This document shows, piece after piece, positions 31,685 through 33,669 of a DNA stretch of 64,000 bases. How positions within the stretch are numbered: the first letter of the stretch is position 1; every line of letters begins with the position of its first letter. Made by a program: the position numbers and the translations under genes. The stretch covers positions 253,383 to 317,382 of the forward strand of contig MU004187.1 in NCBI GenBank assembly GCA_010093605.1. The letters are read 5' to 3'. This DNA is from Lophium mytilinum. Its lineage: Eukaryota > Ascomycota > Dothideomycetes > Mytilinidiales > Mytilinidiaceae. The notes below the pieces were generated by a model. The model made no database searches. It had not been told where the DNA came from and was given only the letters and a program-made list of their open reading frames with translations.

Positions 31685-33669
31685 TTACCCATTACCATGC
31701 AAATATTTATGGCAAAGGTCTAGGGGCTGAACTACGTGTTGGTAAAGTTCCCGCCTCCAGGCATCACCGTCTGGAACTTTCTTACTGCCAAGCAAACACC
31801 AGTCCACAGCGCCAGCATAATCAGGTCCAGCCTCCTCTCCTACTGTTTTGAGCCACTCGAAGGCAGCAAGCTGATCGAAACCTGACTTCGTTTGTTCGTC
31901 TCCGGAAGGGTATTGAAGGCGGGCTGGGTGGTTCTCAATCAACGTTCCAAAGCAAAGCTCCAATAAAACGACGCCGAGAGCGGCAAAGCTAGAAGAATTA
32001 CTATTCTGAACGTGAATTGCTGAAGCAGGAGACGAGAAGTTGCGTGTAATGTAGGGCCGATCGAGCAGAATCGTATTGGAATCGTCGCAATCGCGAAGAA
32101 AGCATATCTCCGACTTAGACCAGCAACCCTTCAGCCACGAAGAGTCACGTAGTTGTAGGAAAGACGATGCTAGAATTAGCGCGCTTGAATACCTCTGACG
32201 ACGGCTTAGAGGCGGCTGAGCTTGTGGAGAGAGAAGTTGATCGAGGGTGGCCTCTCGATGAGTGGGGCTGCTAACTTTTTGTGGGACAAAAGACATGTAG
32301 CAGCGCTTGTCCTCATCCTCAAGGAACCCGCGGAGAGGAGTAGTGGGTTTACTGTTGCTTAGTGATAGGCACAGATTCTCGATCTTGGAGATACTGGCAT
32401 CGTCATCAGTGAATTGCGGTGGTGGATTTCGTGAAGCTTGTGGCAAGAGATTCGATGTGAGAGTAATTGTCGGCTTTCTGAGTCAATGTTAGTCGCGAAA
32501 TTAAAACATATCGATTCTCTACTCACTCAGCATTAGACACACAAGTGCTACTTTGACTCTGGCTAGTCTTACGCTGTGCTCCCAGGGACGGTCTTAAAGG
32601 CAGAGCTGTTCTGTGATTTGGTGTTGACGCAGGTGAAGAGGTTACTGAAGTCATGACTATTGGAACACTCTCAGAGGCGGGCAGAATAGCGTCAAGTAAC
32701 TTGATATGTGCGTCCTGCGAAGACCAAGGAGTTGGAGTGGAGAAATTCCTCGACGCTGCAAACATGAATAGCAACCTGAACTCGGCTTCAGCACCAGTTT
32801 TGTGTTGAAGAAGCATTCGAACGCAATGCTCTCCCCAGCAATTGCATTTCCAAGCACCGGAAAGGAGGCTGTAAAGACGATCTGCATGCCGCCAAAACCG
32901 GCCCATAGTTGTGCTCATAGTTGAAATTGCAGCTGATGCTTGCTGTGAGACATTCTCGCTTTCCAAGACAGCCATGACATCGCTTGTTCCCAACAATTTC
33001 TCTAGTCTCTCGTTGCATGTTTGGAGCTCATCGAAGAGTCGTTTCCGATTGGGTTCTCCGACACTAAATTTGATGCGATATGCTTCGTATTCGAGATTGG
33101 CTTTGACGGAGGTCTTGACCTTGGGAGTTTTTGGGACATGTTGTGTGTTCTGCCGCTTTCCCCATGACTTCGAAACCTAGTATGAAGGTGTGGTTAGCTT
33201 CGGGACGGTACGAGTAATCTATCCGCTACGACGCAAGGGGAATCCGTGCACCAACCTGAAGCCGGCTAACTTTCTCTTGAAAGCCGGTCTTCTCCCCACC
33301 CAACTCCTTGTTGAGTTCGTTCATCGCTTCGTTCATCTGTTGCATTATGTGAAAGTATATCTCGTACGAGTCCTGGAGTCTGTCCTCGAGTTGCCTGGCT
33401 AGCTCTGGATCCTTCCACCCCGCGCCACCTAGATCAGCAACGAGTCGTTGAATCTGGTCCTTGTCGGCGACCAATGGTAGTAAAAGCTGCTTGAGGTTTC
33501 TTGAGAAGATGACTCTATGGTAGCTGATCTCGCTGCTGCACTTCTGGTACTCGAGGCGAATCTCCCACCAAAAACCAAGGCTCCTCGCAACCGTGCGGTA
33601 CTTCTCCAATGCCGTTAGAGCTACCGGAAACGCACCGAGCACAAGACCGGCTATTTCAACCCCAGACAT
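31685..33669 (-). CDS. DUF7580-type protein: helical N-domain plus degenerate kinase-like C-domain
   Basis: Exons 33669-33256, 33176-32527 and 32477-31685 join to 618 residues. The start at MSGVEIAGLVLGAFPVAL follows the usual form for this family; nine more codons lie upstream in frame. Residues 1-140 are strongly helical: a hydrophobic first helix, then YQKCSSEISYHRVIF, LGGAGWKDPELARQLEDRL and MNEAMNELNKELGG. The middle is serine/proline-rich. The C-terminal part (about residues 430-618) matches what is called DUF7580 in fungi. ALILASSFLQLRDSSWLKG, then CWSKSEICFL, IHVQNSNSSSFAALGVVLLE and DYAGAVDWCLL read like kinase helix E, a broken catalytic loop, helix F and the C-lobe. No HRD or DFG is present. 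The function is unknown; a role in fungal self/non-self or cell-death signalling is inference. Confidence 0.75.

What the first reader, a model, noticed from the sequence alone, without database searches (positions are those of the whole stretch)
31685..33669. DUF7580 protein reads like a fungal MLKL-type architecture: helical bundle plus dead kinase lobe
The C-terminal domain has the pattern of a protein-kinase C-lobe: a helix-E-like stretch (SSALILASSFLQLRDSSWLK), then a ten-residue segment where HRDLKPxNILL would be (CWSKSEICFL). Next is a stretch where an activation loop and APE would fall (YITRNFSSPASA). Then comes ALGVVLLELCFG, which resembles kinase helix F (xxGVxLxEL). No HRD, DFG or lysine can act, so it would be a pseudokinase. 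The N-terminal 140 residues begin with a hydrophobic helix and continue as amphipathic helices, as in HeLo/HeLo-like domains of fungal cell-death executors. MLKL in animals has the same order (four-helix bundle, pseudokinase). The gene sits in an accessory island beside a second multidomain gene. A cell-death or defence role is inference only.
Basis: partly seen in the sequence, partly recalled or inferred. Interest (0 to 1): 0.75.

Follow-up and report, generated by a model that had tools for sequence, protein, structure and literature searches.

The report
Fungal helical-bundle pseudokinase gene pair
A fungal gene encodes a bundle of helices joined to a dead protein kinase, an MLKL-like layout, and it sits head-to-head with a zinc-finger gene in a pairing that recurs in this genome and in some other fungi, which suggests an uncharacterised two-gene module, possibly for self-defence.

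Summary
The gene is real: a three-exon, 618-aa Lophium mytilinum protein. Its C-terminal part is a complete but degenerate protein-kinase fold: the AlphaFold2 model has both lobes in kinase order, the 50 listed Foldseek and 50 listed VIA rows are kinases, pseudokinases or proteins containing one, and profile comparison (P=4.2e-17) links it to a family fusing canonical HeLo to a kinase-like domain. HRD and DFG positions are lost. Direct sequence searches did not show the kinase. The N-domain is a helical bundle; HeLo kinship is weakly supported (beats 60 shuffles, but hhalign probability only 32% and no Pfam HeLo match). The pairing recurs at 13 of 18 DUF7580 places in this genome, with correlated divergence (Mantel 0 of 5000, 12 pairs), and elsewhere (seven pairs with consecutive locus tags). 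The partner's C-terminal domain varies (ankyrin, TPR, CNH, BAG and others). I propose an executor-sensor module; function is inferred, not shown.

The parts
33256..33669 (-). exon 1 of the DUF7580 gene (residues 1-138): hydrophobic first helix and most of the helical bundle
   Evidence: splice model; identical to P0001; helices 3-31, 34-63, 70-78, 88-122 in the model
32527..33176 (-). exon 2 (residues 139 to part of 355): long helix 179-246, kinase N-lobe strands within 255-300, low-confidence stretch 306-371 begins here
31685..32477 (-). exon 3 with stop: rest of the pseudokinase domain; DUF7580 Pfam match at residues 377-608
32150..32203 (-). helix E (residues 447-464)
   Evidence: model; conservation
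32096..32134 (-). position of the catalytic loop, degenerate (residues 470-482, LKGCWSKSEICFL)
   Evidence: profile alignment to HKGLRSSNILFF; column counts
31949..31999 (-). helix F (residues 515-531)
   Evidence: model; L522, G523, E528, L529 and C530 in at least 101 of 104 rows
33670..33828 (.). 159-bp gap between the two facing start codons (195 bp if the partner starts at its second ATG): possible shared two-way promoter
   Evidence: start positions; promoter role inferred
33829..34195 (+). partner gene exon 1: N-terminal region with FDLWAGNIGA
   Evidence: model; profile match; homologues aligned
34254..34947 (+). partner gene exon 2: middle region and first zinc-finger cysteines
35001..36157 (+). 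partner gene exon 3: C2H2 zinc fingers (AcuF type; PF26082 is precomputed for homologues) and, in the same open frame, ankyrin repeats at about 35560-35739
36216..36881 (+). partner gene exons 4-7 (modelled with four introns; two equal-scoring models of 900 and 894 aa, the second used): DUF6590 domain, E=2e-25
   Evidence: splice models; Pfam

Best explanation
The gene encodes a protein with a HeLo-like helical bundle and a pseudokinase, and it forms a functional unit with the divergently transcribed zinc-finger gene beside it. Proposed mechanism: the N-terminal bundle, with its hydrophobic first helix, is the effector and is held inactive by the degenerate kinase domain through the long linking helix. 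The AcuF-type zinc-finger partner, whose C-terminal domain differs between pairs, is the sensor or regulator. When the sensor meets its signal, it releases the bundle, which acts at a membrane and kills or arrests the hyphal compartment. Shown here by computation: the two-domain architecture, loss of the aligned catalytic residues, the recurrent head-to-head pairing, the correlated divergence of the two genes, and the variety of C-terminal domains in partner homologues. Inferred: that the proteins interact, which of them senses, membrane action, and a role in cell death or immunity.
Against: No HeLo match for the window protein at E up to 10, nor among the 25 shown of 51 families matched by 35 family members, where SesA appears once at E=0.082. 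The N-half fold search listed only generic bundles, best E 0.087. The family profile finds no kinase in the PDB at E up to 10, and three active kinases gave P=0.078. The first helix is not special by hydrophobicity: helix F of the kinase part scores slightly higher (1.95 against 1.86). Nearest neighbours agree between the two genes for 6 of 12 loci and differ for the other 6. Two strains in both lists have different contig lengths (Immersiella caudata, Hypoxylon argillaceum; listings). Five of 18 places lack a detectable partner. The overdispersed list of PMC13412767 also holds RNase_H and zf-CCHC, which are typical of transposons (recalled), so overdispersion alone does not mean recognition. 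Zinc fingers could equally mean a nuclear role. No expression, interaction or killing data.
Confidence: 0.5

Rival explanations
1. The pair is a nuclear regulatory unit: the zinc-finger protein binds nucleic acid and the pseudokinase is a scaffold or co-regulator; the helical bundle is an oligomerisation domain, not a membrane effector.
For: The partner carries conserved C2H2 fingers. The listed matches of the N-half are generic helical bundles. The first Foldseek row is a Pan2:Pan3 chain; Pan3 is a pseudokinase scaffold (recalled).
Against: The first helix is hydrophobic (Kyte-Doolittle 19-residue mean of at least 1.6 in 96 of 104 rows). Weak profile link to HeLo and the canonical HeLo fusion in the bridge family. 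Many diverged paralogous pairs and varied C-terminal domains fit recognition better than housekeeping.
Confidence: 0.25
2. The pair works as a toxin-antidote unit, for instance a spore killer or an incompatibility pair in which the partner neutralises the DUF7580 protein.
For: Tight head-to-head linkage, correlated divergence, overdispersed copy number of the zinc-finger family between strains (PMC13412767, passages).
Against: Homologues of both genes persist in many genera; the 34 DUF7580 homologues aligned are 27-46% identical to the window protein, which is unusual for selfish killers. No drive data.
Confidence: 0.12
3. The neighbourhood is only co-inherited: the two genes share a promoter and co-duplicate for mechanical reasons, without working together.
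For: Short gaps between start codons make separation costly. In two strains the listed copies have different contig lengths.
Against: 13 of 18 places keep the pair although the nearest paralogues share only about 24-41% identity in the DUF7580 gene.
Confidence: 0.13

Closest known systems
HeLo + kinase-like proteins of fungi (PF14479 + DUF7580/Pkinase; 'HELL with kinase/pseudokinase' in PMC12881547)
   Same: N-terminal helical domain followed by a kinase-like domain of the same DUF7580 family; one member in this genome (C3:1992724-1994682)
   Different: There the N-domain is a clear HeLo and the catalytic loop keeps HKGLRSSNILFF; here HeLo is not recognised by Pfam and the loop is far more degenerate. 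The three HeLo- or kinase-like places of this genome (L022, L029, L031) have no zinc-finger partner in the few kb fetched
MLKL (animals; MLKL-like proteins of plants)
   Same: Helical bundle, connecting helix, then pseudokinase, in that order
   Different: No sequence membership shown; activation segment short; a divergent zinc-finger partner gene; no MLKL row among the listed structural matches, which is no evidence against
het-S/NWD2 and other two-gene fungal cell-death clusters
   Same: Adjacent effector and partner genes
   Different: The window's partner shows no NTPase domain; an amyloid motif was not searched for; a zinc-finger protein with a varied C-terminal domain instead
Plant head-to-head NLR pairs with integrated decoys (e.g. 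RPS4/RRS1, recalled)
   Same: Divergent gene pair, one member with variable extra domains
   Different: No NB-LRR domain was matched in either window protein. A survey found head-to-head NLRs rare in Sordariales (PMC12258605, passages), and this pair is not an NLR pair

Membership tests
DUF7580 (PF24476) | Pfam match over the curated cut-off | tested here: met
   75.3 bits against cut-off 27, residues 377-608; 35 of 35 scanned family members match at E<=1
Protein kinase fold | Bilobal fold, N-lobe sheet with helix C, helical C-lobe E-F-G-H-I | tested here: met
   Predicted model order; the 50 listed rows of each fold search are kinases, pseudokinases or proteins containing one
Active protein kinase | beta-3 Lys, HRD Asp, DFG Asp | tested here: not met
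   Aligned positions C473 (HRD Asp) and R500 (DFG Asp); Asp not among the five commonest residues at either in 104 rows; the beta-3 Lys position is not certain
Protein kinase families (PF00069/PF07714) | Pfam match over cut-off | tested here: not met
   No match at E up to 10; paralogues L022 and L031 match below cut-off
HeLo (PF14479) | Pfam match over cut-off | tested here: not met
   No match at E up to 10
HeLo / HeLo-like superfamily | Remote profile similarity, collinear over the domain | tested here: inconclusive
   P=4.8e-4, probability 32%, collinear 1-232, best of 60 shuffles 0.01; three single HeLo proteins of this genome gave 0.14, 0.011 and 0.14. Of 10 N-terminal pieces scanned one, L026, reaches PF17111 (PigL_N here, Helo_like_N in PMC9815663) at E=0.0076, below cut-off; the family aligns to L026 at P=3e-8
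HeLo / MLKL four-helix bundle | Fold match to HET-s or MLKL 4HB | tested here: inconclusive
   Neither among the 50 rows listed in each; absence is not evidence against
HeLo / MLKL | Membrane permeabilisation and cell killing | not testable with these tools
   needs experiment
MLKL | Pseudokinase activated by an upstream RIPK3-like kinase | not testable with these tools
   needs experiment; phosphorylation sites not examined
Two-gene fungal cell-death clusters | Conserved adjacency of effector and partner genes | tested here: met
   13 of 18 in this genome, all 13 divergent; 7 consecutive locus-tag pairs elsewhere
Two-gene fungal cell-death clusters | Demonstrated cell death | not testable with these tools
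   needs experiment

The most novel reading that the evidence does not exclude
DUF7580 and AcuF zinc-finger genes form a large, uncharacterised immune or allorecognition system of filamentous fungi: head-to-head executor-sensor pairs in which a HeLo-like pseudokinase is the fixed killer and the zinc-finger protein carries exchangeable C-terminal domains (ankyrin, TPR, kinase, BAG, CNH, EH, DUF6590, NACHT-type) as integrated decoys or sensors. It would be a non-NLR analogue of plant paired receptors.
Probability: 0.35. Interest if true: 0.9.

Novelty: new variant of a known kind. Interest (0 to 1): 0.7.

Why it matters
It gives a predicted fold and a partner to a fungal domain family of unknown function (DUF7580; 0 papers in the held library). 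It also points to a recurrent gene pair that can be tested for fungal immunity or allorecognition. If the executor-sensor reading holds, fungi have a paired-receptor strategy built on a pseudokinase instead of an NLR, which bears on how MLKL-type architecture arose.

Tried and rejected
Direct sequence evidence for a kinase from this family alone failed: the A1 profile against the PDB gave one hit, a designed protein, at E up to 10, and an alignment of three active kinases gave P=0.078 (my motif search found a catalytic loop in 3 of 7 kinase-bearing partners, 4 were dropped). The link therefore rests on the model and the bridge family.

HeLo by comparison with single HeLo or HeLo-like sequences of this genome: P from 0.006 (L029) and 0.011 (L041) to 0.14, and 0.017 or more. 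In one search loci L015, L016, L017 and L019 were read on the wrong strand, so those rows are void and the seven-sequence alignment is poor.

CENPH match (E 1.1e-3, below cut-off; 2 of 35 members): taken as chance.

L026 as a fourteenth pair: its divergent neighbour resembles the partner N-terminus by eye, but P=0.028 among 266 tests, so not counted.

The number of partner genes in the genome could not be obtained. Chance was therefore computed for assumed counts of 20, 50, 100 and 200 (at 200, P of at least 13 of 18 is 4e-17).

Full report
WHAT IS THERE. The finding lies in a 43-Mb fungal genome. The spliced protein I modelled on the minus strand (three exons, 618 aa) is identical to NCBI protein BU16DRAFT_507162 of Lophium mytilinum (P0001). 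DUF7580 (PF24476) covers residues 377-608, E=8.6e-21; the only other Pfam matches at E up to 10 are CENPH (1.1e-3) and DUF6388 (0.21), both below cut-off. The database search found 126 homologues at E<=1e-3 and listed 120; the named sources that I recognise are filamentous ascomycetes. I aligned 104 of the 120 listed proteins (A1); 16 short, long or partial ones were left out.

BRIDGE TO REAL KINASES. Sequence alone does not show it directly: the A1 profile found no kinase in the PDB at E up to 10, and three active kinases gave P=0.078. A bridge does. In the same genome one 744-aa open frame carries HeLo (PF14479, 5.5e-40), DUF7580 (3.3e-10) and, over the same C-terminal stretch, sub-threshold Pkinase (9.2e-4) and PK_Tyr_Ser-Thr (1.6e-3) matches. 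It has 381 homologues at E<=1e-3, of which 120 were listed. Profile comparison of the window family with this frame and 41 of those homologues gave probability 98.4 and E 5.7e-15 over residues 378-609, and P=4.2e-17 for the C-terminal slices. The alignment sets KGCWSKSEICFL against HKGLRSSNILFF, PYITR against PYLSGFDYSRP, and ALGVVLLELCFG against SLGVILLEIAYW. The bridge profile in turn matches LIMK1 (E 1.4e-4), BRAF (6.2e-4) and PERK (1.8e-3), and also a chain named SMALL S PROTEIN, which I take to be HET-s (9.9e-4), in the PDB (60 of 239 matches shown).

DEAD KINASE. In A1 the position of the HRD aspartate (C473) is S, G, P or K in 75 of 104. The following lysine position (S475) is mostly S, T, C, G or R, and the DFG-Asp position (R500) is R or Q in 76 of 104. 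Aspartate (473, 500) and lysine (475) are not among the five commonest residues at these places. The asparagine position (E478) is D in 71 of 104. The activation segment is short and has no APE. The whole family looks catalytically dead, not just this protein.

THE N-TERMINAL DOMAIN. Both models show a bundle: helices 3-31, 34-63, 70-78, 88-122, 128-144 and 160-177 and the long 179-246; in the N-half model of homologue P0105 the last ones are split at 172-210 and 213-236. The first helix is hydrophobic (19-residue Kyte-Doolittle mean 1.86; at least 1.6 in 96 of 104 rows), but helix F of the kinase part scores 1.95, so the score alone does not show membrane insertion. A start of the type MSGxE is kept in 10 of 11 paralogue N-termini examined. 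HeLo kinship is suggestive only. The profile of residues 1-250 against the HeLo region of 115 bridge proteins gave P=4.8e-4 with hhalign probability 32%, collinear end to end, against a best of 0.01 in 60 column shuffles and 0.2 for the reversed profile; three single HeLo proteins of this genome gave 0.14, 0.011 and 0.14. Of 10 N-terminal pieces scanned, one, the diverged paralogue L026, reaches PF17111 (named PigL_N here; Helo_like_N in PMC9815663, passages) at E=0.0076, below its cut-off. The window family aligns to L026 at P=3e-8. Fold search of the N-half listed only generic bundles.

THE PARTNER GENE. The 'second multidomain gene' is on the plus strand, 33829-36881. Its start codon faces that of the DUF7580 gene across 159 bp, or 195 bp from its second ATG. 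Its homologues carry PF26082, the AcuF-type C2H2 zinc finger: 65 of the 88 listed hits by my count of the listing. In the window the fingers and ankyrin repeats lie in one open exon, and a DUF6590 domain (E=2e-25) follows in a modelled four-intron tail (two equal-scoring models, 900 and 894 aa, the second used). NCBI's own model of this gene is marked partial, 465 aa (P0121).

THE PAIRING RECURS. I fetched DNA around the other 17 of the 18 DUF7580 places of the genome and scanned all 18 for the partner with a profile of 18 homologues. Thirteen of 18, the window included, have it: 11 with E of 1.1e-12 or better, L025 and L027 weaker at 2e-4 and 3e-4, all 13 in divergent orientation. The same scan over the HeLo and PF17111 loci (L009-L021, L039-L041; short flanks) gave no partner match. 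The five without are three HeLo- or kinase-like proteins (L022, L029, L031), a fragment (L030) and L026, where the signal is not significant; only a few kb of flank were held. Over 12 pairs with enough aligned residues (L028 left out) the distances in the two genes correlate: r=0.55, 61 of 66 comparisons usable, 0 of 5000 label permutations as high. Three pairs of loci are each other's nearest in both genes (window-L024, L032-L033, L034-L035); for the other six loci the nearest neighbour differs, and four of the partners are short fragments. Even with 200 assumed, chance would give at least 13 of 18 with P of 4e-17.

OTHER FUNGI. The two hit lists (120 and 88 proteins) share 14 contig lengths, the window's own contig included. 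Seven have consecutive locus tags: DL768_009267/8, DL771_005554/5, PG986_014545/6, PG993_013237/8, PG994_003443/4, PG995_012070/1 and BP5553_02199/200; four of these are Apiospora and two Monosporascus, so they are not independent. Two more lie on contigs of only 12.4 and 7.7 kb. On multi-megabase contigs a shared contig alone does not prove adjacency. Against this, 106 of 120 and 74 of 88 have no mate in the other list, which may be search depth, and Immersiella caudata and Hypoxylon argillaceum appear in both lists with different contig lengths (listings).

VARIED DOMAINS. Beyond the fingers, the 65 partners with PF26082 carry, by my count of the listing, PF26118 (9), ankyrin (7), TPR (4), protein kinase (4), and single cases of CNH, BAG, EH, ARID and an NPHP3/NACHT-type domain. 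My own scan of seven of them confirmed CNH, BAG, kinase, TPR, EH and NPHP3_N in one protein each; in the seventh the ankyrin match was below cut-off. Among the 14 contig-sharing pairs the partner ends are ankyrin (with DUF6590 in the window, by my own model), CNH, PF26118, BAG and TPR; the kinase, EH, ARID and NPHP3 cases are not among those pairs, so their pairing is not shown. Single cases may be gene-model fusions; the recurrent ones are unlikely to be.

MECHANISM. The simplest reading is executor plus sensor: a HeLo-like bundle restrained by a dead kinase domain, and a zinc-finger protein whose variable end senses different cues. Support from print: HELL domains with kinase/pseudokinase domains exist in fungi, and fungal cell-death pathways are often two- or three-gene clusters (PMC12881547, passages). 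The zinc-finger family is named among the most overdispersed in 72 N. crassa strains together with HET and ankyrin, but also with RNase_H and zf-CCHC (PMC13412767, passages). Head-to-head NLR pairs are rare in Sordariales (PMC12258605, passages), so this would be a different solution. I found no paper with DUF7580, and only the one paper above for PF26082/AcuF. The pairing was not seen in the listings, which cover open-licence papers only and which I read as titles and abstract openings.

VERDICT. The new element is the recurrent pair. Function remains inference.

Noticed in passing
window 54642-56054, minus strand: A HET-domain (PF06985, E=1.2e-25) open frame lies about 21 kb from the DUF7580 gene; HET is a fungal incompatibility domain.
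   Followed up: partly
window 18866-20395 and 38018-40944, minus strand: Open frames that look by eye like membrane proteins; no Pfam match at E up to 0.01 for the two pieces scanned.
   Followed up: partly
window 522-1742, minus strand: RIO-type kinase (RIO1 E=5.3e-42), probably Rio2; many other open frames of the window look like conserved core genes by eye.
   Followed up: no
L031 (own genome C9, about 1319571-1320140): A DUF7580-like frame with LVHKSIRPENILLF that matches both DUF7580 and PK_Tyr_Ser-Thr below cut-off: another intermediate between DUF7580 and kinases.
   Followed up: partly
P0204 (Xylariales sp. AK1849, BJ170DRAFT_377180): AcuF-type zinc-finger protein fused to an NPHP3/NACHT-type NTPase (E=2.5e-33), a possible direct link of the partner family to fungal NLRs.
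   Followed up: partly
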